From assembly GCF_000949135.2 (NCBI RefSeq), contig NZ_JTAN02000012.1, positions 124,001 through 188,000 of the forward strand: 64,000 nucleotides of DNA. The letters run 5' to 3'. Each line of letters begins with the position of its first letter. The stretch's first letter is position 1. Of this stretch, positions 14,559-26,789 are shown in pieces. The stretch is from Burkholderia sp. USMB20. Lineage in GTDB: Bacteria > Pseudomonadota > Gammaproteobacteria > Burkholderiales > Burkholderiaceae. The notes under the pieces were generated by a model. It had not been told where the DNA came from. It was given only the letters and a program-made list of their open reading frames with translations, and ran no database searches. The position numbers and the translations under genes are program-made.

Positions 14559-15429
14559 TCACAGTGCCGTGAGCGCACGCCGGTAGCGGATCGCCTCGGC
14601 GATCTGCGCGGCCGTCGGCAATGGGTCGCCGGCCAGGTCGGCGATCGTCCGTGCGACCTTCAACACGCGGAAATACGCGCGTGCCGACCAGCCGAAGCGC
14701 TCGCCGGCCTCGCGCAGCAGTCGCTCGCCGTCGTCGGTCGGCCGGCACAGGTCGTCGGTCTCGCGCCCGCTCAGCATGTGATTGGTCTTGCCCTGCCGGT
14801 CGAGCTGCAGCGCACGCGCCCGGGCGACCCGCGCGGCGACCGCGGTGCTCGGCTCGCCGGGCGCCGTCGCGCGCGACGCGAGTTCGGCCGGCGATAGCGC
14901 GGGCAGGTCGATCTGGATGTCGATGCGGTCGAGCAACGGCCCCGACAGCTTGCGCAGATAGCGCGTGGCGAGCTCCGGGGTGCAGCGGCAGCGCCCGGAC
15001 GGATCGCCATGCCAGCCGCACGGGCACGGATTCATCGCGGCGATCAGCTGGCACGCGGCAGGGAAGTCGGCCTGCTGCGCCGCGCGCGAGATCGTGATGC
15101 GGCCGACTTCCAGTGGCTCGCGCAGCATCTCCAGCACGTGCCGGTCGAATTCGGGCAACTCGTCGAGAAACAGTACGCCGAGGTGCGCGAGCGTGATCTC
15201 GCCCGGCTGCGGCGGGTTGCGGCCGCCGACCAGCGCGGCGGCGCTCGACGAGTGGTGCGGCGCGCGGAATGGGCGCCGCCGCCAGTGCGCGGGCGAGAAG
15301 CCGATGCGGCTCGCAGAAAGGAGCGCGGCCGACGCCAGCGCCTCGTCGTCGGTCAGCGGCGGCAGGAGGCCGGGCAGCCGCGCGGCGAGCATCGACTTGC
15401 CGGCGCCGGGCGGCCCGATCATCAGCATG
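14559..15429 (-). pseudogene. comM: comM, 3' part (AAA+ domain), separated by the integrated element
   Basis: Carboxy-terminal two thirds of ComM, a YifB/Mg-chelatase-like hexameric helicase that promotes branch migration during natural transformation. Reading leftward from 15428, MLMIGPPGAGKSML holds the Walker A motif directly after the break. LFLDELPEFDRHVL is Walker B, followed by AAMNPCPCGWHGD and the C-terminal Mg_chelatase_C region ending YRRALTAL. The natural ATG-CTG-ATG at the junction leaves a start codon, so a 289-residue fragment could in principle be made, but it lacks the N-terminal domain. The missing N-terminal part is at 25994-26789. Confidence 0.92.
15420..15429. repeat. Left attachment core (attL)
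   Basis: CATCAGCATG, identical to the right copy at 25994-26003. On the minus strand it reads CATGCTGATG, encoding the His-Met-Leu-Met just before the ComM Walker A. Serine integrases need only a 2-bp crossover, so the exact exchange point inside this core is unknown. Confidence 0.85.
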
Positions 15430-15759
15430 GAGGGACGATGAGACCCGACCGGAAACGCCCACTGGAGGCCGCGCCCCTACCGGGGGTGGCCCCTTTGGAG
15501 AGTAAGGCCCCCCTGTTCTGCAGGGACCCCCTGGGGTAGGTAGGGGGTACCTTGCGAAATCCAAACGGAAATCTCTGGCGGACAACTCCACTCACGCGAC
15601 CTGAACAACAACAACGGCGACTCGAGCTTTACCGGAGTTTTTGAAGTGCCCTGAAACGCCGATAGGGGGGTACCTCAGAAAGCGCCGCCCGAAATAAATC
15701 AGCCAAGTGAAACCCGCGCCGCCAGCACGGATGCGGACCAAACACCGACGAGACCAACC
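15430..15759. other. Left-end non-coding region of the element with G/C-tract repeats
   Basis: No gene seen. Polypurine/polypyrimidine tracts cluster at 15470-15555, including CCCCTACC and its inverted counterpart GGTAGGGG. TAGGGGGTACCT (15541-15552) recurs at 15664-15676 with one extra G. Such dense short repeats near an element end could be integrase arm sites, a promoter-operator array or a packaging site. The sequence does not decide between these. Confidence 0.35.
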
Positions 15760-16029
15760 ATGCTCACCATCATTGTCGTTCTGCTGTTCCTGATCCTCCT
15801 CGCGATTGCTGCACCGTCCCTGTTGCTCAGGCTCGCTCTGGTAGTCGCGTGGCCCTTGGACCTACTGCTGAACCTTGGTCGCCTGACGCTCCTGGTGCTC
15901 AGTCTTCCATTCTTATTGGCCCGTAGCGCCAGCGCGTTCTTGTACAAGCACATTGGCTGGGTGTTCCTGGGTGTCTTGGTCCTGTTTGGGATCGAGCTGT
16001 TCGCCACCTTCATGCAACACGCCAACTGA
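15760..16029 (+). CDS. Small hydrophobic membrane protein of the element
   Basis: 89 residues, mostly hydrophobic, with about three membrane segments (residues 2-22, 24-50 and 66-84). I do not recognise the family. The ATG is preceded by only a weak ribosome site. As the first gene inside the left end it could be a lysis, superinfection or membrane-targeted effector protein, but nothing in the sequence proves this. Confidence 0.55.
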   Translation: MLTIIVVLLFLILLAIAAPSLLLRLALVVAWPLDLLLNLGRLTLLVLSLPFLLARSASAFLYKHIGWVFLGVLVLFGIELFATFMQHAN

Positions 16030-16069
16030 GAAGCGCCAGCGGGCACTGTCAGACCAGACTACACCATGA

Positions 16070-16081
16070 CCTGACGTCAGG
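16070..16081. promoter_or_regulatory. Perfect palindrome CCTGACGTCAGG upstream of the resolvase
   Basis: 12-bp perfect palindrome sharing the CCTGAC half with the inverted GTGTCAGG (16096-16103) and CCTGACAC (16159-16166) copies that flank the resolvase promoter. It is probably part of an operator or resolvase-site array. Confidence 0.45.
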
Positions 16082-16095
16082 CGCATAGGCGGAAT

Positions 16096-16166
16096 GTGTC
16101 AGGTCGAAGTTGTTTTCCGATTTGCTTGACACTCTGTCGACCACATCTTAGACTTCGTCCTGACAC
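16096..16166 (+). promoter_or_regulatory. Resolvase promoter flanked by inverted repeats
   Basis: TTGACA (16126-16131), 17 bases, TAGACT (16149-16154) make a near-consensus sigma-70 promoter. GTGTCAGG at 16096-16103 and its inverse CCTGACAC at 16159-16166 bracket it, as expected for binding sites of an autoregulating recombinase or a repressor. It drives the gene starting at 16186. Confidence 0.6.
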
Positions 16167-16185
16167 TTACCAACGGGAGCAGGAC

Positions 16186-16746
16186 ATGAGCAAGGGGCAA
16201 CGCATCGGGTACCGCAGGGTTAGCACGGTCGACCAGAACACGGCCCGCCAGCTTGACGGTATGACGTTTGATGCCGAGTTCACGGACAAGGCCAGCGGCA
16301 AGGACACGAAGCGCCCCCAGCTTGAGGCCCTCATGCGCCACGCTCGGTCTGGAGATCATGTGTATGTCCACTCAATTGACCGCTTGGCACGGAACACGGC
16401 AGACCTCCTGCAACTGGTCGAAACGCTGACCGCCAAGGGTGTAGCGCTGTCGTTTGTGAAAGAAGGTCTCAACTTCACCGCAGACCGTGCGGACCCCTTC
16501 CAGACCCTCATGCTGTCGATGCTCGGGTCGGTGGCTCAGTTTGAGCGGGCGATCATTCTGGAGCGGCAGCGCGAGGGCATCGCGGTAGCTAAGGCCGAGG
16601 GGAAGTACCGGGGCGGCAAGGCCAAGCTATCGGCCGAGCAGGTAACGGCGATGCTGGCCCGGGTGAACTCGGGGGAACCTAAGGCCCAAGTTGCGCGGGA
16701 CTTCGGCATCAGCCGCGAGACGCTGTATCAGTACCTTTCGAAGTAA
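16186..16746 (+). CDS. Small serine recombinase (resolvase/invertase family)
   Basis: 186-residue site-specific recombinase. The catalytic domain starts RIGYRRVSTVDQN with nucleophile Ser13, and contains VYVHSIDRLARN and the long E-helix region AQFERAIILERQREGI. A C-terminal helix-turn-helix is seen in KAQVARDFGISRETLYQYL. The length fits Tn3-type resolvases and DNA invertases. It is a second, unrelated-size serine recombinase beside the large integrase at 24401. It may resolve multimers, invert a segment or regulate. No obvious paired inversion sites were seen beyond the promoter-flanking repeats. Confidence 0.9.
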   Translation: MSKGQRIGYRRVSTVDQNTARQLDGMTFDAEFTDKASGKDTKRPQLEALMRHARSGDHVYVHSIDRLARNTADLLQLVETLTAKGVALSFVKEGLNFTADRADPFQTLMLSMLGSVAQFERAIILERQREGIAVAKAEGKYRGGKAKLSAEQVTAMLARVNSGEPKAQVARDFGISRETLYQYLSK

Positions 16747-16808
16747 CCCAGGGGGCCGCGAGGCCCTCGGAAACACCAACAAACCACCAACCAAAGAAGC
16801 AAGAACGA

Positions 16809-16940
16809 ATGGACCAGAACGTTTACACCATCATTGACGGGGCAGCAGCAGCAGCGCAGGACGAAGACATTTGCTATGTGATTGACGCGGGGAATGAGGC
16901 CGAGTGGTCGGAAGACATTTGCTATGTGATTGAGCAATAA
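16809..16940 (+). CDS. 43-residue acidic peptide with internal EDICYVI repeat
   Basis: The frame reads MDQNVYTIIDG, then an alanine run, DEDICYVID, a 9-residue spacer and SEDICYVIEQ. The repeat comes from a perfect 23-bp direct repeat at 16863-16885 and 16911-16933, 48 bp apart, so the frame is preserved. It ends in TAA and a strong terminator follows 33 bases later, so it is probably the last gene of the resolvase transcript. The family is unknown. It could be a regulator peptide, an inhibitor or a precursor peptide. The start has no strong ribosome site, though AAGAAGCAAGAACG precedes it. Confidence 0.5.
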   Translation: MDQNVYTIIDGAAAAAQDEDICYVIDAGNEAEWSEDICYVIEQ

Positions 16941-16972
16941 CGGCCCGGTATAGAAGACCAACGACCACCTAG

Positions 16973-16992
16973 CGGCCCTTCGGGGCCGTTTT
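16973..16992 (+). terminator. Rho-independent terminator after the small peptide gene
   Basis: CGGCCC, loop TTCG, GGGCCG, then TTTT. The stable UUCG tetraloop and T-run make it a convincing terminator. Confidence 0.8.
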
Positions 16993-17692
16993 GCATTTAG
17001 TCGCCACTGCAACAAGAGAAAGGCCCTGGTAATACTTATTGCGCTTTTGCAACATGGCTTTTCGCCAGTCGGACGGGCTTTCCTCGGTACTCTCCGATAG
17101 CGACCAATAGTAGAAAAATATGCTGCATATTGGCTGATTTGAGGAATATTCAGGTTTCCGCGAATCTCTAATTTTTCTGCTTTAGAAACAAGGACATGGA
17201 ATTTATCCTCCTGTAAGAGAAGAGGCCGCGATTGTCAGAGAAGAAAATTTCCCTTCTGCCAAGCGACCCGGTGAATTTGTCGCCACTTATGGAAAAGGCA
17301 GCCGAGCGCCGAGGCGATTACCGGGGACTCCAAGGCCGAGCGCAACAGCGGCGGGTTTAGTCGACACCATCCTAAGAACGCCCCGGACCCAGGCGGAATT
17401 ACCCACTCGTATAGAAGGCCTCTCGGAACCCTACGGGACGCGGCGAGCCAATTAGGCCGTACTTAAAGAAGGAAGACCGCCACCACGGGTGCCCACGTTT
17501 TAAGCAGCCTTTCCGCTAGGAGCCATTCGCGGCCCTAAGCCTCACCCATCCCCCAATCAATCACCGCCAGCCCGTTCCCGGTCCCCATGCGGACCCGCGC
17601 GGAGGCATTCGCACGCCCGTAGCAGTCACGCGCCCGAGCCTTGGCGACATTCCCATCATTTTTTGCTGAATCACGCACCAAAAGGAGCACCA
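16993..17692. other. 700-bp gene-poor segment of the element
   Basis: No supported gene. The first half is AT-rich for this element, with AATATG-CTG-CATATT (17117-17131) as an inverted repeat. A minus-strand open frame (17535-17717, 60 codons, ending DWGMGEA) has a hydrophobic start and could be a small protein, but it has no recognised family and overlaps the next gene's start. The segment might hold an RNA, a replication or packaging site, or decayed genes. Confidence 0.35.
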
Positions 17693-17971
17693 ATGAACAC
17701 CCGACAGACAAACCCACCGACCGCGACGCAAGCGCCGGTCGTGCGCCCTTACGCGAAACGCGGGACCAAGACCTCAGCTCGCGAAGCGGCCCGCAAGGCG
17801 GGTCAGAAAACGTTCACGTTCACCTGTCACAAGCACGGACTCACGGCCTTTGGGACCGCTGGACAAGGCCATTGTCGAGCATGCGCCGCAGATCGTAAGC
17901 GAGACGCCTACGAACGCCAGAAACGAGCCGAGCTGGCAGCAGCGAACACCACCTACGACACCAACGGGTAA
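17693..17971 (+). CDS. Small zinc-ribbon protein, paralogue of the next gene's N-terminus
   Basis: 92 residues, with AAAGGAG ahead of the ATG. A probable zinc site is formed by Cys45, His48, Cys61 and Cys64 (CHKH then CRAC), in the same pattern and sequence context (KTFTFTCHKHGLTAFG) as the following HNH protein (KTFQWRCQQHGRTAHY). It looks like a duplicated N-terminal half that lacks the nuclease domain. Only 5 bases separate it from the next gene. It may bind nucleic acid or modulate the nuclease. Confidence 0.65.
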   Translation: MNTRQTNPPTATQAPVVRPYAKRGTKTSAREAARKAGQKTFTFTCHKHGLTAFGTAGQGHCRACAADRKRDAYERQKRAELAAANTTYDTNG

Positions 17972-17976
17972 CGACC

Positions 17977-18681
17977 ATGAAGACCACGAAGAAAGCAGCA
18001 GCAGCACGCGCCAAAGCGGTCGGCCTGAAGACGTTCCAATGGCGCTGCCAGCAGCATGGCAGGACCGCCCACTATACGAGCAACGGCAAGTGCGCGACGT
18101 GCAAGGCCGCACTAAGCGCTAAGAAGTACGCAGAGCGTGTTTCAACGCCAGAGGGCCGCGAAGCACACAACACGCATCAGCGGGCGTACCAGCGGAGCTT
18201 GCGCAATACCAGCGCCAGCTACAGAGGCAACGGGCGCGAGAACCGCGCGGCGCAGGCCTACTGCAAGGCCACAGGCGGCAATCTCCCGGCCAGCTATAAC
18301 GCCGAGCGTGAAACTCTCCGGGCATTCTATGCAGCTCTGCCCGAGGGCCACCACGGCGACCACAGGACGCCCAAGGTAGCCAAGGATCACCAGGGGAACC
18401 ACGTCGCCAGCGGTCTGCACACGTTGAGCAACCTCAGGGCAGTCCCTGCCAAGCTCAACCGCATGAAGGCGACGCACTTCGATCCCGACAATTTCCGCGA
18501 CCAAAGGCCCGCCAACGCGTTCCCCGGAGGCGCTTGGGACCCTGAGCTGACCGAGCGGGAGTGGGCGCGGGTCGAATTGTTAGTCCGTCGATACGGTTGC
18601 GACCGGGACGCCTCCGTCCGAACCATCCAAGCGCAGGTTGCTCGCCAGCGCGAAACCTACCTCCAAAACAACGCAGCCTAA
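17977..18681 (+). CDS. HNH endonuclease with N-terminal zinc ribbon
   Basis: 234 residues. The N-terminal zinc ribbon has Cys24, His27, Cys39 and Cys42. An HNH nuclease core follows, with GDHRTPKVAKDHQ (Asp128, His129), GLHTLSNLRAV (His148, Asn152) and Asn161/Lys164 (LNRMK), matching the DH...GLH...NL...N..K pattern of phage HNH enzymes. Such nucleases serve homing, packaging or DNA degradation in phages. The role here is not shown. It is followed by the long ejection-like protein gene, 12 bases downstream. Confidence 0.78.
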   Translation: MKTTKKAAAARAKAVGLKTFQWRCQQHGRTAHYTSNGKCATCKAALSAKKYAERVSTPEGREAHNTHQRAYQRSLRNTSASYRGNGRENRAAQAYCKATGGNLPASYNAERETLRAFYAALPEGHHGDHRTPKVAKDHQGNHVASGLHTLSNLRAVPAKLNRMKATHFDPDNFRDQRPANAFPGGAWDPELTEREWARVELLVRRYGCDRDASVRTIQAQVARQRETYLQNNAA

Positions 18682-18693
18682 CCACACAACACC

Positions 18694-21294
18694 ATGCCCG
18701 ATCAAACCGATATTCCCGCCCCCCAAGCCCCGTTACATCCTCAGTATTCCTTAGGGAAGTGGGCAGCCTTCGCCCCCGCAGGATACACCTCGCCCACGGT
18801 CGACACCCAGCCCGCAGGCGATGACCCAGCAGCCAACGCGCCTGCCCAGGTCCAAGCCGCACAGTCGAGCGCCGCACCCGCACCCACGGACCTCTCGACA
18901 GTCCCGGTCTCCAAGCTTCTAGCCGCCTATCAGCGAGCCTCAGCGGCCAAGGACTCGGACGCCATGGGCCAACTCTCGGATGCCCTCGGACCTCGGCTGG
19001 TGGACGGTCTCCAGCGAGCGCAGTCGGCTAACGATTCAGACGCCGTGAGCCAGATTCAGGGGATGATTGCCCAGATCGGCGGAGCCGGGTCGCCGCAGGC
19101 GCAGATGCACCCCGCAGGCGTAGCCGCAGGAAGCCCTCCGACGGCCGCGCAGGCTCCAGGGCAGGCAACCCCACAGGGCATCCTATTGCGGCCCCGCAGT
19201 CCCACGGCACAGCCGCAAAGAGCGCCGTTAGCGGTCGCAGGGACAGCCGACAACGTAGGCCCCCCGGCCTCAGCCAAGAATCCGACCCTGGGCGAGGCCC
19301 TCGGGCAGTTCGCGAACCAACTATGGCAGCATCCGGGGTCGACGCTTTCGAATATCGGCAGCGCAATCGCCAAGGGGGCGCAGCAGATTGGCCACGGCCT
19401 GGAAACAGCTCCGCTCCACACGGTGGACTCAGCGGTCCGAGGCGCGGCCGACGGTCTCACCTTCGGCGCAGCAGACAAGCTGGCAGCTTTGGCCGAGTCC
19501 GTCCGTAACGGGACCTCCTACCAGGACGAGCTGCTGAAACAGCGACAGCAGGACCAAGCGGGCGGGGCGGCATTCACGGCCGGTCAACTCGCTGCGCCAC
19601 TCGTCCCAGGAGCCGGCGCAGTCTCGCTGGCAGGTAAAGCAGCCGAGCTTGTGCCGACCGCTAGCAAGATTGCCCGTATGGCAGCGGGGGCGGTCGCTGG
19701 CGGTGTCGAGGGCGGGGCCAGCTACCTGGGCCACAACGACGGGCAGCAGAACCCGGACGACCTCAACACGGCGATGACGCTGGGAGCCGCAGGCGGCATG
19801 CTCCCCGGCCTCTTCACGGGTCCGACCCAAGCCCAGCGGGCCGCTCAGTTCCTCCAGGACACCGCAGCCGCCCAGGCAGCGGCAGGACCGAAGCCCGGTC
19901 TCGTTGCGAGCGCCCTAAAGCAGCTTGGGACCCTGGGGCAGACAGGGGCGGAAGCGAACGCCGGGACCATGGCCGCAGCCCAGCGGGACGCCGGGATCAT
20001 TCAGGACCTTAGCGCCCTGCAGAACCGAGCGACCCAGGGCGGGGCCAAGCTGGGAGCAGCAGACGCGAACGCACTGGCCAACGGATACGCCCAGCAGGCC
20101 GGGGCGAACGTCCGCCAGCTTGTCGGTAACGGTGTTGTCGACCAACAATCCGGCAATCAGTTGCTCGGGGCGCTCCAGGGCGCTCGGGGTCTCAACGATG
20201 CTCAGGTCGCCGGGATTCGAAATATGCCGGGATTGCCCCAGGGCGTGGGGGATGCGGTAGCGGACGCGATCCAGCAGAAGCAACGAACCCTTGCGATTAC
20301 GGCAGCGGTCCCGGTGTCGAGCAACCCGCTCCTGAGCGTGGCCCGTATGGCCGTTGATAACGGAGCCTTGCATCTCATCCCTGGTATCGGTCCGCTCCTG
20401 AACCTCAAGTCGATCCGCGAGGGAATCACGGGACTCCTCGGGGGCCGCGAGAATCGCACGGCAAACATCGCCAGCGCAATCGGACAGGCAAACAACGCGG
20501 GAGCGTTCTTGGCCCAGCAGGGACCAGGGCAAGCGGTCCAGAGTGCCGCAGGACTGGCACAGATGGCCCGGAGTGCCCAAGCGGCGCGAGCAGCGGCCCA
20601 GGCGTCTCAGCAGGCAGCGGCAGTGAACACCCAGGCCGGCGCGTTCATCGGTCGCGGGATGCAGGCGGCAGCGGCCCAGCGGGCAACCTTGGCCCAGGGA
20701 CCCGCACAGCGGCTGGCAGCGGCCCAAGCAGCAGCCCAGGCAGCAGCGGCCCAGCAGCAACGGAACACGCTCCAAGCTGCTACCCGGATGCCGCTGGGCG
20801 GCGGATACCAGACCCTCCTCCAGGGCGGGCAATCTGGTCTCAACCTCACGCCGCAGCAGGCCAACGCAGGGCTTCGGATCCTCTCGAATCACCCGGTGCT
20901 TGGTCCCATCGCGAACGAAATGCGGCAGACGGGCGGCGTGGCAGATCCGACGCAGTTCTATGCGCTGCAGAACGGGCTTAGGGGACTTCAGAGCAACGGA
21001 GCAATTCCACAGACCGCGTCCCCGGCACTCCAGGCCGCGCAGTTCGCACAAGCCCCCACGGTTCGCAACCCGGCAGCCTATGCCGCAGCCGTCAGCCGCA
21101 ATCAGGCGATGGTCGACCACGCAGTTGCGAACGCTCCCAGCCCGCACCTTGCGTCCGTGGCTCATCAACTCGGGGCCACCAGCTCCCCTGTAGTGAAACA
21201 GCAAGCGATTAATGCCGTGATGAAGAAGGCGTCCCCGTCTGAACGCTCCTATCTCACGACCTATGTAAAACCGCTGGTCAATTACGGTAAGTGA
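18694..21294 (+). CDS. 866-residue Ala/Gln-rich protein resembling phage DNA-ejection (internal virion) proteins
   Basis: Low-complexity protein very rich in Ala, Gln and Gly. The segment AVRGAADGLTFGAADKLAAL followed by SYQDELLKQRQQDQAG and a hydrophobic Gly/Ala stretch (AAPLVPGAGAVSLAG, later AAGAVAGGVEGGASYLG) is a pattern I recall from internal-virion or ejection proteins of podovirus-like phages. Long coiled, Gln/Ala repeats fill the C-terminal half. No enzymatic motif is seen. It is the only structural-type gene in the element. A satellite might use it to modify the helper's particle or injection. Confidence 0.55.
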   Translation: MPDQTDIPAPQAPLHPQYSLGKWAAFAPAGYTSPTVDTQPAGDDPAANAPAQVQAAQSSAAPAPTDLSTVPVSKLLAAYQRASAAKDSDAMGQLSDALGPRLVDGLQRAQSANDSDAVSQIQGMIAQIGGAGSPQAQMHPAGVAAGSPPTAAQAPGQATPQGILLRPRSPTAQPQRAPLAVAGTADNVGPPASAKNPTLGEALGQFANQLWQHPGSTLSNIGSAIAKGAQQIGHGLETAPLHTVDSAVRGAADGLTFGAADKLAALAESVRNGTSYQDELLKQRQQDQAGGAAFTAGQLAAPLVPGAGAVSLAGKAAELVPTASKIARMAAGAVAGGVEGGASYLGHNDGQQNPDDLNTAMTLGAAGGMLPGLFTGPTQAQRAAQFLQDTAAAQAAAGPKPGLVASALKQLGTLGQTGAEANAGTMAAAQRDAGIIQDLSALQNRATQGGAKLGAADANALANGYAQQAGANVRQLVGNGVVDQQSGNQLLGALQGARGLNDAQVAGIRNMPGLPQGVGDAVADAIQQKQRTLAITAAVPVSSNPLLSVARMAVDNGALHLIPGIGPLLNLKSIREGITGLLGGRENRTANIASAIGQANNAGAFLAQQGPGQAVQSAAGLAQMARSAQAARAAAQASQQAAAVNTQAGAFIGRGMQAAAAQRATLAQGPAQRLAAAQAAAQAAAAQQQRNTLQAATRMPLGGGYQTLLQGGQSGLNLTPQQANAGLRILSNHPVLGPIANEMRQTGGVADPTQFYALQNGLRGLQSNGAIPQTASPALQAAQFAQAPTVRNPAAYAAAVSRNQAMVDHAVANAPSPHLASVAHQLGATSSPVVKQQAINAVMKKASPSERSYLTTYVKPLVNYGK

Positions 21295-21378
21295 CGAACC
21301 CAGCAACCCTAGCAGCGGCGGGCCTTAGCGCCCGTTGCACCCACTACACAACTCCTCACCAATCCCGAAGCCCCTTGG

Positions 21379-21394
21379 ACCCGAAATTTCGGGT
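21379..21394. promoter_or_regulatory. 16-bp perfect palindrome ahead of the ParB-like gene
   Basis: ACCCGAAATTTCGGGT, perfectly self-complementary, about 30 bases before the chosen start at 21426, with no T-run. It is probably an operator or a ParB/parS-like site. Confidence 0.5.
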
Positions 21395-21425
21395 TCCTCT
21401 GGGCGTCATATCGAGATACAAAAAC

Positions 21426-22373
21426 ATGCCAAACCCCTTGTCAGATAAGGCCCGCAAGCCGCATGAGTGGACTGCGGCCGACCTCGGAATTTTGCAGATT
21501 CAGTGGAAAAAAAGCGCCCCTGAGACCCTGTCCGTCCCCCTCAAAAAGGTGCTGGTCTGCCCGAAGGTATTCCAGGTACGCGACCTCCGCACCAAGTCGA
21601 AAGCCGGTATAACTAACAACGACCATGTAACGAAGCTGGCGGAGCGCCTGGACAAAGAGACCGACTTAGACCCTATCCTGGTCCTGCCCATTAGCGCTAA
21701 CCGGTTTGTTATCGTTGACGGGACGCACCGCAGGGCCGCATATGACCGCAGGCAGCGCCAAAACATCCCCGTGCGGGTCTTTACCGGGACGCTGGACGAG
21801 GCCCGAGTGGCCGCAGGGCGCAGCGACAACGCGAAGAAGCGCCTTGAATGGTCCTCAGCGGAAAAGTCGCAATACCTTTACCAGCTCATCCTGGAGCGCC
21901 TGAGTGCAACCAGCGACAAGCGCATGACCCACAAACAATGTGCCGAGGCCGCAGACAGGACCCCACGTCTGGCCGAGCATATGGAGCGGTTCATTCGGCG
22001 CTGTACGGATGCGGGCCTCCCGATCCCTGAGAAGTGGAACGGCGGCGCGTGGGCAACGGACGAGGGCGAGTCTGAGAGCGCCGAAGAGCGCATGGCCCGA
22101 CAGTTCGCTGAGAAGCTGCGGAGCGCCCTGGGACCCCTCAGCTCCAAGGCGAAAGCGCGGGCGCTTGGGATCGCCCTGGGCCAATACACGGAACGTGCGG
22201 GCGAGGTCGCCATGGCCCTGGTCGAGGACCAGGGACTCCAGGAGACGGTCGTAGAGGGGTTTGATGAGATGGTCGCAGAACAGGCCGAGGAACACCTGGA
22301 GGCCCTGCAAGCCGAGTTGGCCGCGCAGGAGTGTCTAGCAGGGCTGTCTGCAGCCGTGGGCGCTGGGTTCTAA
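21426..22373 (+). CDS. ParB/sulfiredoxin-like DNA-binding protein of the element
   Basis: 315 residues from ATG 21426. The frame reaches upstream to a GTG at 21291 that overlaps the previous stop, but the palindrome lies in that part. The N-terminal half shows the ParB-like core VIVDGTHRRAAYDRR, with KLAERLDKETDLDPILVLP ahead of it, as in ParB N-terminal domains. The middle has a helix-turn-helix-like segment (THKQCAEAADRTPRLAEHM). The C-terminus is acidic and helical (AEEHLEALQAELAAQE). It could be a partition, transcription or replication regulator. No ParA is encoded nearby. Confidence 0.7.
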   Translation: MPNPLSDKARKPHEWTAADLGILQIQWKKSAPETLSVPLKKVLVCPKVFQVRDLRTKSKAGITNNDHVTKLAERLDKETDLDPILVLPISANRFVIVDGTHRRAAYDRRQRQNIPVRVFTGTLDEARVAAGRSDNAKKRLEWSSAEKSQYLYQLILERLSATSDKRMTHKQCAEAADRTPRLAEHMERFIRRCTDAGLPIPEKWNGGAWATDEGESESAEERMARQFAEKLRSALGPLSSKAKARALGIALGQYTERAGEVAMALVEDQGLQETVVEGFDEMVAEQAEEHLEALQAELAAQECLAGLSAAVGAGF

Positions 22374-22516
22374 TCACACAACGGCGCGGCTGCCTTGCTC
22401 ACCCACACCGCCCGCATCTCCAGCGGGTATCCCTTGCCGTAGTTCGCGCCCATGCCCGGGGTCTTGTGGCCGGTCATAGAGGTACCGTGCGTGACCTCGG
22501 AAGCGACTGGCTGTAG
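22370..22516 (-). pseudogene. 3' remnant of a tyrosine recombinase (integrase)
   Basis: On the minus strand an open frame encodes VASEVTHGTSMTGHKTPGM and then GANYGKGYPLEMRAVWVSK before a stop at 22370. The His-Gly, GHKT and Tyr in NYGKGY fit the last catalytic His and the nucleophilic Tyr of phage integrases. An in-frame stop lies at 22559-22561, so only about 48 conserved codons remain. The stop codon overlaps that of the convergent ParB-like gene. The rest of the integrase has been replaced by the ATPase/TOPRIM and serine-integrase segment. Confidence 0.65.
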
Positions 22517-22658
22517 ATTGAAACTTCCCCTATATGAATCCTGCCCGGCTGGCGGCCGCTATGCGCCCAATCGAACGGACACACAATCTCCCTAGAATAA
22601 GGCACCCGCGCCGCCGCTCGCGATATCCGGATACACTTCCGAAAAACAAGGAGAAAAC
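22517..22658. other. Junction and leader region before the ATPase gene
   Basis: Non-coding. Base composition changes here from the GC-rich element to the lower-GC ATPase/TOPRIM pair. AAGGAG at 22648-22653 is the ribosome site for the GTG start at 22659. No clear promoter was identified. Confidence 0.35.
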
Positions 22659-23738
22659 GTGCTCAAGAGTGTCGTTATCGAAAACTACAAGGGGCTAGAG
22701 CATCTCGAGGTGCCGAATATGGCGTACTTCAACCTCGTCGGGGGGCGGAACGATGTCGGCAAGTCCTCCTTGCTGGAGGCCATCTTCGCGTACTTTGACC
22801 GCGTCAACCCCACTGCGCTTTTTAGTCATTTGGGGTGGCGGGGCATAACTACGGTCGCAGGAACCCCGGAGAATCTTTGGGGACCGGCATTCAGCCAGTT
22901 CGATCTAAGCCGAATCATGAGCATCGCAGGCACCGATACGAACGGGATTACCGATATAGTTACATTCCGTCTCGACAGGAACCACGTTCGCCCTACGGCT
23001 TTCACCCCGTTCACCGGCGGAGTTGCAAACATAGGTACTCTCAAGAGCGAACCTGGGCAGGTTGCGCTTGCGGTTCGCGCGAAGCGCGGCACAAAGACGC
23101 TGCAGGAGACTTTCGTTACTTTCAATGCCGGCGGATTTTCGGCAACCGGCAGCATTCAAGAAAGTCAAGCAGCGCAAGCCGCCTATTTGACTATTCCTGG
23201 ACGCCTCAATGATGCGAATGGACCTATTCGTTTGACGCAATTGGATTCCGAGGGAAAGACCGACCAAGTCTTAGCGGCGGCAAAGCTGATCGAGCCGAGA
23301 GTTGAGGGGTTGAGTGTCGGCGCGGGATTGAATGGAACAACGTTTATTAACGTCGCGATTAAAGACTTGCCGAAAAAAGTCCCATTATCGTATTTGGGAT
23401 CGGGCGTCTCTGTTGTGGTAAACGCAGTTCTTGCGATACTAACAGCGCCGGGCGGCATGGTCCTGCTGGATGAATTGGAAGTTGGCATTCATCATAGCTC
23501 GCTGGAAATCGTCATCAAGGCGCTGAGTGAGGCCGCTTTCAGTAGCAAGTGCCAAGTTGTAGCGACGAGCCACAGCTATGAGTGCATAAGAGCCGCCTTT
23601 AATGTCTTCGAACAGTTTGATGAAAAGCGGTTTGCCTATCATCGACTTGAAAGAAACAAAGAATCGAGAGTTGTGGCAAAGACCTATCCCAAGGAAGCAT
23701 TAGCCTATGCCCTTGATAGCGAATGGGAAGTTAGATAA
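22659..23738 (+). CDS. OLD/ABC-type ATPase (AAA_15/AAA_21-like), first gene of a pair
   Basis: 359-residue SMC/ABC-like ATPase. The N-terminus MLKSVVIENYKGLEHLEV is typical of OLD and RecF-like proteins. Walker A is GRNDVGKSS (29-37), the signature-like loop is YLGSGVS (245-251), Walker B ends in Asp271-Glu272 (VLLDELEVG), and the H-loop His305 is in ATSHS. No TOPRIM domain is fused. It is supplied by the next gene through a TAATG overlap. GTG start with AAGGAG. Its GC content is visibly lower than that of the flanking genes, suggesting separate acquisition. The family suggests an ATP-driven sensor in antiphage defence, as in class-4 OLD (PARIS) systems. The role here is inferred. Confidence 0.85.
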   Translation: MLKSVVIENYKGLEHLEVPNMAYFNLVGGRNDVGKSSLLEAIFAYFDRVNPTALFSHLGWRGITTVAGTPENLWGPAFSQFDLSRIMSIAGTDTNGITDIVTFRLDRNHVRPTAFTPFTGGVANIGTLKSEPGQVALAVRAKRGTKTLQETFVTFNAGGFSATGSIQESQAAQAAYLTIPGRLNDANGPIRLTQLDSEGKTDQVLAAAKLIEPRVEGLSVGAGLNGTTFINVAIKDLPKKVPLSYLGSGVSVVVNAVLAILTAPGGMVLLDELEVGIHHSSLEIVIKALSEAAFSSKCQVVATSHSYECIRAAFNVFEQFDEKRFAYHRLERNKESRVVAKTYPKEALAYALDSEWEVR

Positions 23739-24397
23739 TGACTCGACCGAAATCAAAGAAAATCTCAAAACAAAAGGTCTTGCTGGTCGAAGGGCGCGAT
23801 GAGGAGGAACTCATTAACAAAATCCTTCGCCGTGCGGATAGAACTGATGTCGAAATTTTCCAAAGCGAAGGGAAGGACAACATCAACCGGGCCATCGGTG
23901 CGATGAAGTTCTTCGAGGGTTTCGATGATGTTACGCATTTTGGTGTCATTCGCGATGCTGATGGCGATGCGAACGCCGCTTTCACAAGCGTCCAGCATGG
24001 GCTGCGGCAACACGGATTGCCTATGCCAGACGCCCCGAGCAACCCGAATACAGTGGGAGCTTTGACGACCTCGGTGCTCATTTTGCCGGGCAACGGACAG
24101 CCGGGCATGCTGGAGACGCTGGTTTGGCGCACGGTTGAAACCACCCAAATTGCGCAAGAGGCGGAAACCTTTCTTACACGATGTCGGGGAATCCTCCCAC
24201 CCGCAGACAACGGTGCGAGACCGGATGGGCCAGACGGATGGCGTGCGCCTAGAAATGTCGACAAGGCACGCATTTGCGCACTACTGTCGACAATGATCGA
24301 CCCGCAGGGGCGTATGGGAATCGCTGCGCAGCAGAACTACTTCGACTTGCAGCATCAAGAACTCCGCCCGCTGACGGACTACATTGCGGCCCTGTAG
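23738..24397 (+). CDS. TOPRIM/DUF3226-like protein, partner of the ATPase
   Basis: 219 residues. The N-terminal strand VLLVEGRDEEELINKIL gives the TOPRIM Glu18-Gly-x-Asp21 motif, and GVIRDADGDAN gives the Asp73-x-Asp75-x-Asp77 motif, the metal-binding signature of TOPRIM nucleases and DUF3226 proteins. The ATG overlaps the stop of the ATPase gene (TAATG), so translation is probably coupled and a fixed ratio of the two proteins expected. By analogy with PARIS AriB it may be the toxic effector. DUF3226 members are largely uncharacterised. It ends 4 bases before the convergent integrase stop. Confidence 0.82.
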   Translation: MTRPKSKKISKQKVLLVEGRDEEELINKILRRADRTDVEIFQSEGKDNINRAIGAMKFFEGFDDVTHFGVIRDADGDANAAFTSVQHGLRQHGLPMPDAPSNPNTVGALTTSVLILPGNGQPGMLETLVWRTVETTQIAQEAETFLTRCRGILPPADNGARPDGPDGWRAPRNVDKARICALLSTMIDPQGRMGIAAQQNYFDLQHQELRPLTDYIAAL

Positions 24398-24400
24398 CCG

Positions 24401-25960
24401 CTACGCCGGGACACCCGCTAGTGCGGGGTCCTGAGTCTCGTCAGTCTCCAGCCACTGATACGTGGTCCGCACCACGGCCCCGCTATGCGCGGTCATGACC
24501 AACATGCCGGTCTGGTAGTCGACCACCACCGAGGCGAATAGCTCGCGCAACGCGGTATTGGCCGCTGAGACCCCGCCGCCGTCGAGCGCCCCCCGGAGGT
24601 CTCCGAGGCGTGCCGCAAGGCTCCGAGTCCCGAGCAGGGTCCGCTTGCCCCTTATCGTCTCCTGCAATTCCTCCAACTCGGTCTCCAGTTCCCGGAGTCG
24701 CTTAGTGATCGCGGGGGAGCGGCCGACTGTCGCGAGCGTGTCGACCAGTTCCTCAATCTGATCTCCCAGGGCCATCGCGGTGGCGTCTAGTTTGGTGATC
24801 TCGTCCGCGAGACCTTCGGACCCGTACGCGGATAGGGACGCGGCGATCTCGTCATAGCTCGAGCGCACGGCGATCTCCACATAATCGAGCCGCACGGCCT
24901 TGTAATCGCACCCCGCGCCGCCCTTGGCCCGAGCGCAGACCAGATAGGGCTTGCCTGCCTTGGAGCCTCTGCCCTTGGTTACCCGGGTCATTCGTGAGCC
25001 GCACAGGGGGCAGACCGCCAGACCCGCCAACACGTTCTGAAGCGGCACCGCGCCCTTGGTCTTGGTGTTCCCCGAGGTTGCCTTCAATGCCTGGGCGCGG
25101 GCGAAGGTCTCCTGGTCGATCACGGCCGGGTAATAGTCCGGGACGGTGCCATGTGGCTGGCGTTGCGCCTTGCCGTCGACATGCTCCAGGGTGCGGGTAG
25201 TCAGCGTACCAATCACGGCGGGGTTCGTCTGAATCTTGTGAACATAGGACCCGTGCCATTGCTGGGCATGACCGAACGGGGCGATCCCCTCTTCATTGAA
25301 CGTCCGGGCGATGGTCTCTTTCCCCTGGCCCTCCAGGGTGAGCGCGAAGACCCTACGGACCAGGGCGGCGCGGTCTTCGATCACTTCGATTCGACCGCGA
25401 GGCGAGCTATCGTCCTTGACCACCTGGAGCCAAGCGGGAACCTTGGACGTGAGAACTGCCCCCTCAGACTGGACCCTTGCCCGCTTGGCCGACCATGCCT
25501 GTTTGAGCCGCTTGGACTTGGTCAGCGATTCCTCATGAGCGCGGATCATGACCAGGAGCGACATGATCAGGTCGAGCGGGTTGGCGTCAATCGCGGCCTT
25601 GCTGTACACCTTGCCGTCCCCGAGGGTCACCAAGGTAACGCCCTGGCTCACAATGCGCAGGAACAGGGTTTGAGCGTCAGTGGCGACGTTTCTGGAGATG
25701 CGGTCCAGGGATTCAACCAAGAGGTAGCAGTTCGAGTCTATATCTCCATCCTCCACGGCCCGTAAGAACAGATTGAGTGCCCCCGTGGCTGCGTTCTTGC
25801 CCCGAAAGGCTGACACGCCCCGGTCCGCAAACCGAAGTTCCGTGTCTAGCTCCAGGCCGTGTTGCTGCGCGTAGGCTTCGGCGAGAGCGGTCTGTCGGCG
25901 GAAGGAATCACCCTGGGCCTGCTCAGGGGTCGAGAACCGGAGATAGGAATAGGCTTTCAT
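24401..25960 (-). CDS. Large serine integrase of the element
   Basis: 519-residue site-specific recombinase. Catalytic domain: MKAYSYLRFSTPEQ with nucleophile Ser10, and ESLDRISRN. A recombinase domain follows (PAWLQVV, RRVFALTLEGQGKETIARTF). The zinc ribbon is CPLCGSRM with CARAKGGAGC, and it is followed by a coiled coil (ELETELEELQETIRG) and a short C-terminal tail. It starts 34 bases from the right attachment core, the normal position of an integrase. It should integrate the element into comM. Excision would need a directionality factor, which was not identified. Confidence 0.95.
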   Translation of the reverse strand: MKAYSYLRFSTPEQAQGDSFRRQTALAEAYAQQHGLELDTELRFADRGVSAFRGKNAATGALNLFLRAVEDGDIDSNCYLLVESLDRISRNVATDAQTLFLRIVSQGVTLVTLGDGKVYSKAAIDANPLDLIMSLLVMIRAHEESLTKSKRLKQAWSAKRARVQSEGAVLTSKVPAWLQVVKDDSSPRGRIEVIEDRAALVRRVFALTLEGQGKETIARTFNEEGIAPFGHAQQWHGSYVHKIQTNPAVIGTLTTRTLEHVDGKAQRQPHGTVPDYYPAVIDQETFARAQALKATSGNTKTKGAVPLQNVLAGLAVCPLCGSRMTRVTKGRGSKAGKPYLVCARAKGGAGCDYKAVRLDYVEIAVRSSYDEIAASLSAYGSEGLADEITKLDATAMALGDQIEELVDTLATVGRSPAITKRLRELETELEELQETIRGKRTLLGTRSLAARLGDLRGALDGGGVSAANTALRELFASVVVDYQTGMLVMTAHSGAVVRTTYQWLETDETQDPALAGVPA

Positions 25961-25993
25961 GCCGGGAGTATAATGCGGGTCCTACCAACACAC

Positions 25994-26003
25994 CATCAGC
26001 ATG
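25994..26003. repeat. Right attachment core (attR)
   Basis: CATCAGCATG, identical to 15420-15429. To its right the comM codons Gly-Gly-His-His continue on the minus strand. To its left the element sequence makes the truncated comM frame end Met-Val-Cys-Trp-stop. Confidence 0.85.
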
Positions 26004-26789
26004 TGGTGCCCGCCCGCGGCGGCGACTTCGAGCGCGCGCCGGGCGCCGCGCTGGCCGACGACGTCCGCGAGATCGGGGCGGCCGGCGCCGCACGCCGTCG
26101 AGGCCGGGCGCCTCGACCGGCGCGAGCCGGCATCCGGCGCACCGGCCAGATGCGCGCACAGCGCGGCAGATCGGGCGCGCCGAACACGGTGACACCGGGC
26201 ACCAGCGCGGCCTCGGCCGCGCTGTCGAGCGGCAGGTACAGCTCGGGCGGACGGGCTGCGGCCGCCGGCCCGGACGGCGCGACGGCCGCGGCACAAGACC
26301 CGAAGCCCGCGCGGGCCCGCGGCGGCGGCCGAAGCCGGATCCGGTCTCCGCAGCGCAGGACCCGAAGCCCGCTCCAGTCGCCGCGACGCGCCAGTCCCGT
26401 GCCGCGCCGCACGCCATCGCGAACGCGCCCCGCATCGGCCGCAGCGCGCCGGTCAGCGACAGTTCGCCCGCGAATTCGCGGCCGGCCAGCGCGTCGGCCG
26501 GGAGCTGGCCGTTCGCGGCGAGGATGCCGAGCGCGATCGGCAGGTCGAAGCGGCCGGACTCCTTCGGCAGGTCGGCCGGCGCGAGATTGACGGTGATGCG
26601 CCTGACGGGGAAGTCGAATCCGCAGTTCTGCAGCGCGGCGCGCACGCGCTCGCGGCTTTCGCGGACTTCGAGATCGGGCAGGCCGACGATCGAGAACGAC
26701 GGCAATCCGTTGGCAAGATGGACTTCGACGGTGACGTCCGGCGCGCGGCCGGCCGCCGGCGCGCGACTGCGCACCACGGCGAGCGACAT
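25994..26789 (-). pseudogene. comM: comM, 5' part (N-terminal domain), frameshifted and cut by the element
   Basis: Amino-terminal third of ComM. Intact family sequence runs from MSLAVVRSRAPAAGRAPD through GLPSFSIVGLPDLEVRES, VNLAPADLPKESGRFD and ELSLTGALRPMRGAFAMACG. After that the conserved blocks change frame several times: ELYLPLDSAAEAALVPG in one frame, ALCAHLAGAPDA in another, LAPVEAPGLDG in the first again, then DLADVVGQRGARRALEV up to AAAGGHHMLM at the break. At least four single-base shifts are needed between about 26040 and 26400. A near-repeat of AGFGSCAA-coding DNA lies in the same stretch. This could be decay after disruption or sequencing error. Confidence 0.88.

What the first reader, a model, noticed from the sequence alone, without database searches (positions are those of the whole stretch)
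22659..24397. Split OLD-like ATPase plus TOPRIM/DUF3226 pair: candidate antiphage system
Seen: an ABC/OLD-type ATPase (Walker A 29-37, Walker B Asp271-Glu272, His305) overlaps by TAATG with a 219-residue protein carrying the TOPRIM E18-G-x-D21 and D73-x-D75-x-D77 motifs. The pair is lower in GC than the rest of the element and sits as cargo beside the integrase. Known: PARIS (AriA ATPase + AriB TOPRIM, DUF4435) is a class-4 OLD defence system found in satellite phages. Inference: this pair uses a different, DUF3226-like TOPRIM partner, and may be a PARIS-related or distinct defence module. It could also be an anti-defence or replication function.
Basis: partly seen in the sequence, partly recalled or inferred. 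Interest (0 to 1): 0.85.

Follow-up and report, generated by a model that had tools for sequence, protein, structure and literature searches.

The report
Two-gene nuclease module, probable phage defence
A small mobile element sitting inside a bacterial DNA-uptake gene carries a coupled pair of genes, an ATP-driven switch and a metal-dependent nucleic-acid cutter, of a kind listed as a candidate antiviral system whose function I found no report of testing.

Summary
At 22659-24397 lie a complete ABC/OLD-type ATPase (359 aa) and, overlapping by TAATG, a 219-aa TOPRIM protein of Pfam DUF3226. They are cargo of a 10,574-bp serine-integrase element that splits comM.

The two proteins match PDC-M38A and PDC-M38B, a candidate system in PADLOC-DB. 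The ATPase also resembles AbiLi along its full length. The TOPRIM protein matches neither AriB (PARIS) nor AbiLii at E <= 1. So this is not PARIS but another branch of split ATPase + TOPRIM (OLD-like) systems.

Three results support a working unit. The genes are adjacent in 21 of 22 above-cut-off DUF3226 hits and 74 of 80 sampled ATPase loci. Residues E18, acidic 22, D73, D75, E126 and K176 are largely conserved and agree with the two-metal site of BpOLD. The two proteins' trees correlate (r = 0.78).

Relatives lie between gpA and portal gpQ of P2-like contigs, a known antiviral (old/tin) hotspot, and in lambdoid and filamentous contigs and 4-kb ColRNAI plasmids. No excess of other defence genes beside the pair was seen. 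Defence is untested, and structure predictions never returned.

Best reading: an ATP-gated two-metal nuclease causing abortive infection, a divergent member of a catalogued but uncharacterised family.

The parts
22659..23738 (+). ABC/OLD-type ATPase, 359 aa (AAA_15/AAA_21; AbiLi-like, PDC-M38A); ends in ...SEWEVR, a common C-terminal [ED]-x-R
23738..24397 (+). DUF3226 TOPRIM protein, 219 aa (PDC-M38B); E18 (codon 23789), E22 (23801), D73 (23954), D75 (23960), E126 (24113), K176 (24263)
   Evidence: comparison by eye with BpOLD E400, E404, D455, D457, E508, K562 from PMC6755086 (passages)
23736..23740 (+). TAATG stop/start overlap (translational coupling inferred)
   Evidence: sequence
15420..26003 (.). 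Element inserted in comM, 10,574 bp counting one repeat, bounded by a 10-bp direct repeat CATCAGCATG (15420-15429 and 25994-26003)
   Evidence: 8 of 8 fetched relatives align on both sides of this point; the stretch of L004 printed shows one copy
24401..25960 (-). large serine recombinase (integrase), 519 aa, 33 bp from the right repeat
21291..22373 (+). ParB-like protein of the element (weak hits, best 6.3e-8)
18694..21294 (+). 866-aa protein without any family hit; composition resembles phage ejection proteins (impression only)
   Evidence: no hit
17977..18681 (+). endonuclease VII/HNH-like protein
   Evidence: phrog_1035, 5.6e-9
16096..16746 (+). resolvase/invertase-type small serine recombinase
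25923..26789 (-). ORF holding the N-terminal part of split comM (Mg-chelatase ChlI-like); its last codons run into the element
14559..15428 (-). C-terminal part of split comM

Best explanation
The pair is a split OLD-like antiviral module of the PDC-M38 type. The AbiLi-like ABC ATPase is the sensor and gate. It binds ATP, forms a homo-oligomer and holds the DUF3226 TOPRIM protein inactive. A phage-borne signal then switches the ATPase so that the nuclease is released or activated. The nuclease cuts nucleic acid (tRNA or DNA, not resolved) by two-metal catalysis and stops the infected cell, which protects the element and its host population. Shown here: both genes, the conserved operon, the conserved catalytic residues, the correlated trees, and occurrence in phage-like contigs, plasmids and an integrative element. 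Inferred: complex formation, trigger, substrate and the abortive outcome, by analogy with PARIS (AriA hexamer holding AriB) and OLD nucleases.
For: The window's proteins match PDC-M38A and PDC-M38B; PDC-M38A models match 96 of 96 ATPases and the best PDC-M38B model 77 of 80 TOPRIM proteins, window included. Linkage is 21 of 22 from the TOPRIM side and 74 of 80 from the ATPase side, with a gap of -30 to +25 bp in 71 of 74. The two-metal residues and lysine are conserved and agree with BpOLD (PMC6755086, passages). Trees correlate at r = 0.78 against a maximum of 0.09 in 1000 permutations. The pair sits between a gpA-type replication gene and a gpQ-type portal gene in contigs L125 and L126; L127 starts inside the ATPase but has portal, terminase and scaffold. 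That is the locus described as an antiviral hotspot carrying old and tin (PMC9122126, passages). It is also found in lambdoid, filamentous and ColRNAI-plasmid settings and as low-GC cargo here. An 87% identical copy lies in both a P2-like and a lambdoid contig, and the match runs about 245 bp past the TOPRIM gene.
Against: No phage assay of this family was found in the paper searches made. PADLOC scans of 96 immediate neighbours and of 96 genes over 4.5 kb away gave 70 and 78 matched families at E <= 1e-20, with one member per family in the 25 shown of each except mad3 (2 near), so no excess beside the pair. AriA and AbiLi models also match 96 of 96 ATPases, so the ATPase alone does not single out PDC-M38. 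No relative of the TOPRIM protein, or of one P2-like relative, was found in 50,697 deposited phage records. No structure or complex model came back, so the gating step has no structural support. Nine of 109 TOPRIM proteins lack the acid at position 22 and seven lack an acid at position 75.
Confidence: 0.72

Rival explanations
1. True PARIS (AriA/AriB) variant: an AriA-like cage holding an AriB tRNase, triggered by anti-restriction proteins.
For: ATPase hits AriA at 3.3e-15, and AriA models match 96 of 96 relatives at E <= 1e-10; 16 of 80 TOPRIM proteins hit AriB weakly, best 3.8e-6; the TOPRIM profile reaches AriB chains at E = 0.067 and 0.13.
Against: The window TOPRIM has no AriB hit at E <= 1. 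Profile comparison with two AriB-like proteins aligns only 40 columns, probability 71%, E = 3.7e-5. The sequence after the DxD motif is G-x-L-E, against Y-x-I-E in those two AriB-like proteins. The window's ATPase scores better against AbiLi.
Confidence: 0.1
2. An AbiL system in the strict sense (AbiLi + AbiLii).
For: The ATPase aligns 1-359 to the AbiLi model 1-340 at 7e-39. 13 of 80 TOPRIM proteins match AbiLii model PDLC02338 (best 1.5e-13) and 3 match PDLC02337.
Against: The window's TOPRIM does not match an AbiLii model at E <= 1. Models PDLC02337 and PDLC02338 exist in the library. The ATPase-like frames beside two AbiLii hits, recognised by eye, end differently.
Confidence: 0.2
3. Replication, partition or stability module of the element (for example a toxin-like addiction pair), not an antiviral system.
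For: It lies beside a ParB-like gene and the integrase. In two ColRNAI plasmids of 4.2 and 4.7 kb it is the main cargo beside the replicon. Neighbours are not enriched in defence genes.
Against: It is found in unlike carriers (P2-like, lambdoid, filamentous, plasmid, genome contigs). It lies where P2 has old and tin, and in L125 and L126 only a short opposite-strand ORF was called with it between the gpA-type and portal genes.
Confidence: 0.15
4. Anti-defence function of the element.
For: Mobile elements carry such genes; none specific here.
Against: The same two-gene unit is found in genome contigs of many phyla. The full nuclease site and ABC ATPase fit effector systems better (inference).
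Confidence: 0.04

Closest known systems
PDC-M38 (PADLOC-DB 2.0.0 candidate; PMC12988326 attributes PDCs in general to a 2024 preprint by Payne et al., which I did not see)
   Same: Both proteins match its A and B models; same gene order in 74 of 80 sampled loci.
   Different: Window copy is divergent: 14-35% identity to 79 TOPRIM relatives and 19-30% to 95 ATPase relatives. I found no phage test of the candidate.
AbiL (AbiLi/AbiLii, lactococcal abortive infection)
   Same: ATPase similar to AbiLi over its whole length; two-gene ATPase + small partner.
   Different: Partner has no AbiLii hit at E <= 1; ATPase ends in [ED]-x-R, unlike the two ATPase-like frames seen beside AbiLii hits.
PARIS (AriA/AriB), proposed class 4 OLD
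   Same: ATPase and TOPRIM on separate genes; two-metal TOPRIM active site; carried by phages and satellites (PMC10568477, PMC12409363, PMC9122126; passages).
   Different: Distinct TOPRIM family (DUF3226, G-x-L-E) and an ATPase that scores better against AbiLi.
OLD / GajA nucleases (classes 1 and 2)
   Same: Residues matching BpOLD E400, E404, D455, D457, E508, K562 (PMC6755086, passages).
   Different: Split in two genes; no UvrD-like helicase beside it in the window.
PDB 2p62 (hypothetical protein PH0156)
   Same: Best and only confident hit of the TOPRIM profile among solved structures, E = 4.4e-7.
   Different: Listed as a hypothetical protein; only profile positions 10-101 align.

Membership tests
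PDC-M38 (candidate) | ATPase matches PDC-M38A | tested here: met
   1.1e-37; 96 of 96 aligned ATPases at E <= 1e-10
PDC-M38 (candidate) | Partner matches PDC-M38B and is adjacent | tested here: met
   4e-10 and 1.3e-6; TAATG overlap
PDC-M38 (candidate) | Antiphage activity | not testable with these tools
   No assay; no paper in the library holds PDC-M38 or DUF3226
PARIS | AriB-type TOPRIM partner (the label DUF4435 comes from the finding, not from a call) | tested here: not met
   No AriB model hit at E <= 1; Pfam gives DUF3226 and a near-cut-off OLD-like TOPRIM only; short profile match to two AriB-like proteins
PARIS | AriA-type ATPase as best match | tested here: not met
   AriA 3.3e-15 against AbiLi 7e-39
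PARIS | Hexameric cage sequestering the nuclease | not testable with these tools
   Structure jobs never returned
AbiL | AbiLi ATPase | tested here: met
   7e-39, full length
AbiL | AbiLii partner | tested here: not met
   No AbiLii hit at E <= 1; models PDLC02337 and PDLC02338 present
Class 4 (split) OLD | ABC ATPase and TOPRIM on separate adjacent genes | tested here: met
OLD-type two-metal nuclease | E, E/D at +4, DxD, downstream E and K | tested here: met
   E18, E22, D73, D75, E126, K176 present; 92-109 of 109 sequences keep each. Correspondence made by order and spacing, not by a structure
OLD-type two-metal nuclease | Nuclease activity | not testable with these tools
   needs protein

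The most novel reading that the evidence does not exclude
The DUF3226 pairs form their own branch of split OLD immunity, separate from PARIS and AbiL, which stands in for Old itself at the P2 old/tin locus and travels as a self-contained two-gene cassette between P2-like, lambdoid and filamentous phages, 4-kb plasmids and integrative elements. Its ATPase would signal to its nuclease through a conserved C-terminal [ED]-x-R tail.
Probability: 0.35. Interest if true: 0.7.

Novelty: new member of a known kind. Interest (0 to 1): 0.5.

Why it matters
It gives a domain of unknown function (DUF3226) a likely role as the nuclease half of a two-gene immune module found in many phyla, and names the residues and natural contexts (P2 hotspot, minimal plasmids) in which this can be tested at once. 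If it works, it adds a further sensor-nuclease design to the OLD superfamily beside PARIS, Gabija and OLD-bearing retrons, and shows that a small comM-inserted element is a carrier.

Tried and rejected
Rejected: PARIS membership; strict AbiL membership. Rejected as artefact: an apparent single-gene ATPase-TOPRIM fusion in L050 (601 aa), because the frame runs over unresolved letters and the ATPase end looks out of frame. Led nowhere: phage records for the TOPRIM protein, an L125 relative and the element's DNA; for the window ATPase only two partial matches, both Acinetobacter phage MD-2021a; relatives of the 866-aa, ParB-like and HNH-like proteins; the element's DNA in 41 related genomes, where 5 had only short matches of 47-72 bases; the integrase in 61 related genomes, 1 match at 34% identity; PF11536 in 61 related genomes, 0 hits. 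Promoter/terminator scan at chance level. Defence-island test negative: 96 of 135 eligible immediate neighbours and all 96 eligible distant genes were scanned, with no excess near the pair. It is crude: genes were called as longest ORFs, proteins with unresolved letters or over 900 aa were dropped before sampling, and the scan counts families, not proteins. Tree correlation is not corrected for shared descent of the hosts. Of the 6 misses, L089 and L120 stop at or near the contig end, L050 is the artefact above, and L057, L076 and L110 have no TOPRIM hit downstream. Six of the 74 have short TOPRIM frames (one, L069, cut by the end of the locus). Viral contigs: 15 of 28 loci have the pair, plus L152 from a second query. 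The members of A5 and A6 were chosen by profile score and length (79 and 96 listed; one search used 95 of the 96), so searches do not sample freely.

Full report
What is there. The two genes are as described. ATPase: 22659-23738, GTG start preceded by AAGGAGA. TOPRIM protein: 23738-24397, joined by TAATG. Pfam gives AAA_15 (5.1e-16) and AAA_21 (1.3e-13) for the first, DUF3226 (1.7e-25) for the second, and OLD-like_TOPRIM just under its cut-off (22.8 against 23.2 bits). The pair is among the GC-poorest parts of the window (53.5%).

The carrier. Alignment with eight comM loci places both junctions (eight loci were fetched; 20 of 21 genomes had a match). The left match ends at 15429 and the right match begins at 25992-25994 in all eight. 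The 10-mer CATCAGCATG stands at 15420-15429 and 25994-26003, and once in the printed stretch of the intact relative L004. The element is therefore 10,574 bp, with a large serine recombinase at one end, and splits comM. Other genes: a resolvase-like protein, an endonuclease VII-like protein, an 866-aa protein of no family, and a ParB-like protein. Among the eight proteins scanned against PHROGs the only structural hits were weak (tail-fibre assembly 0.022, terminase small subunit 0.018 and 0.085). Small ORFs, and the ORFs of 16747-17662, were not scanned. None of 61 related genomes has DUF3226.

What family. In PADLOC-DB the ATPase matches AbiLi (7e-39, full length) and PDC-M38A (1.1e-37), then AriA (3.3e-15). 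The TOPRIM protein matches PDC-M38B (4e-10 and 1.3e-6) and has no AriB or AbiLii hit at E <= 1. AbiLii models PDLC02337 and PDLC02338 and AriB model PDLC02983 do exist in the library. Among aligned relatives, window included, PDC-M38A, AbiLi and AriA models all match 96 of 96 ATPases at E <= 1e-10. The two best PDC-M38B models match 77 and 73 of 80 TOPRIM proteins at E <= 0.01; mad4 matches 18, AriB 16 and AbiLii 13, weakly. So it is the partner that marks the pair as PDC-M38. PMC12988326 (passages) attributes PDCs to a 2024 preprint and says validation is pending for most of those in its core set; it does not name M38, and I did not see the preprint. Library searches for DUF3226 and for PDC-M38 found no paper; other names for the same thing cannot be excluded.

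Linkage. From the TOPRIM side, whole-genome searches with PF11536 gave 9 matches in 8 of 369 genomes and 17 matches in 14 of 398. Of the 22 above the cut-off, 21 have an ATPase of this family directly upstream; L019, a partial hit, does not. Two of the 22 are a tandem repeat of the pair in one genome. From the ATPase side, 74 of 80 loci have the TOPRIM gene directly downstream, 71 of the 74 with a gap between -30 and +25 bp and 49 overlapping. Tree distances of the two proteins correlate at r = 0.78 over 105 pairs, against at most 0.09 in 1000 permutations; host descent is not controlled.

Active site. In 109 TOPRIM sequences (redundant, unweighted): E18 108, D73 109, D75 92 (E in 10), E126 107, K176 107, G123 107, acidic 22 in 100. 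PMC6755086 (passages) assigns metal A to E400, D455 and D457, metal B to E404, T506 and E508, and a catalytic role to K562 in BpOLD. Order and spacing agree, E18/E22 having the same +4 spacing as E400/E404. The correspondence is made by eye, not by structure. In the ATPase, G29, K35, D271, E272, G276, Q299 and H305 are invariant over 96. 80 of 96 end in [ED]-x-R within three residues of the C-terminus, and 93 of 96 have an Arg in the last six.

Contexts. In viral contigs L125 and L126 the pair lies between a replication gene of phrog_91 (origin nicking) and a portal gene of phrog_68, which I read as P2 gpA and gpQ. L127 begins inside the ATPase and continues into portal, terminase and scaffold. 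PMC9122126 (passages) describes the interval between gpA and gpQ as a hotspot of antiviral systems, home of P2 old and tin. Contigs L140-L143 carry another ATPase + TOPRIM-looking pair there. L152 and L131 are lambdoid by their O-type replication gene; L124 carries a Zot-type filamentous-phage gene and L135 a weaker match to it (27% identity). L127 and L152 share 87% identity over 1,901 bp covering the pair and about 245 bp beyond it, which suggests transfer between unlike phages. In plasmids, 135 records hit, 131 of them Klebsiella. The three records read have the ATPase upstream, two of them 4.2-4.7 kb ColRNAI plasmids. In E. coli, a near-identity search with the L001 pair finds 8 of 5,426 genomes, all on a 4,693-bp plasmid.

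Against. Genes beside the pairs in genome contigs show no excess of PADLOC hits over distant ones. The deposited phage genomes lack the TOPRIM relatives searched. The structure predictions did not return. No activity is shown.

Mechanism. I commit to an ATP-gated two-metal nuclease acting by abortive infection. PARIS offers the model: AriA forms a hexamer that sequesters AriB in the absence of infection (PMC12409363, passages). Whether the target is tRNA, as for AriB, or DNA, as for OLD and GajA, is open; I put the two about even. The C-terminal [ED]-x-R tail is a candidate docking point to the nuclease or the neighbouring ATPase; this is speculation.

Verdict. It is a divergent copy of a catalogued, uncharacterised candidate system, with positional evidence for defence gathered here. 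Novelty: new member of a known kind. Interest 0.5.

Noticed in passing
window 15420-26003: comM is split by a serine-integrase element with a 10-bp core repeat; only 47-72-base DNA matches were found in 41 related genomes and none in the phage records.
   Followed up: yes
window 18694-21294: 866-aa alanine/glutamine-rich protein with no hit in the four libraries; looks like a phage ejection protein (impression) in an element where no capsid gene was seen, so possibly a satellite or remnant.
   Followed up: partly
L140-L143, e.g. L142:6804-9888: In P2-like viral contigs the same gpA-gpQ interval holds a 744-750-aa protein with an ATPase part plus a 290-291-aa protein with a TOPRIM-like CEGQHD motif (seen in L142), a different split pair.
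   Followed up: no
L061:6312-9680 (by lengths and scores the same as L034/L041): A Magnetococcales genome carries two different ATPase-TOPRIM pairs in tandem.
   Followed up: no
L002 (plasmid NZ_CP103622.1): Rop and helix-turn-helix genes as on the small ColRNAI plasmids lie with the pair inside a large conjugative Klebsiella plasmid, between mercury-resistance genes and a Tn3-family transposase/integron region.
   Followed up: no
genome G002 C1:631617-631697: A second, 27-residue copy of the comM 3' end lies about 8 kb from comM in a related genome, as if another island used the 3' end as its site; in G001 the comM match is divided between two contigs.
   Followed up: no
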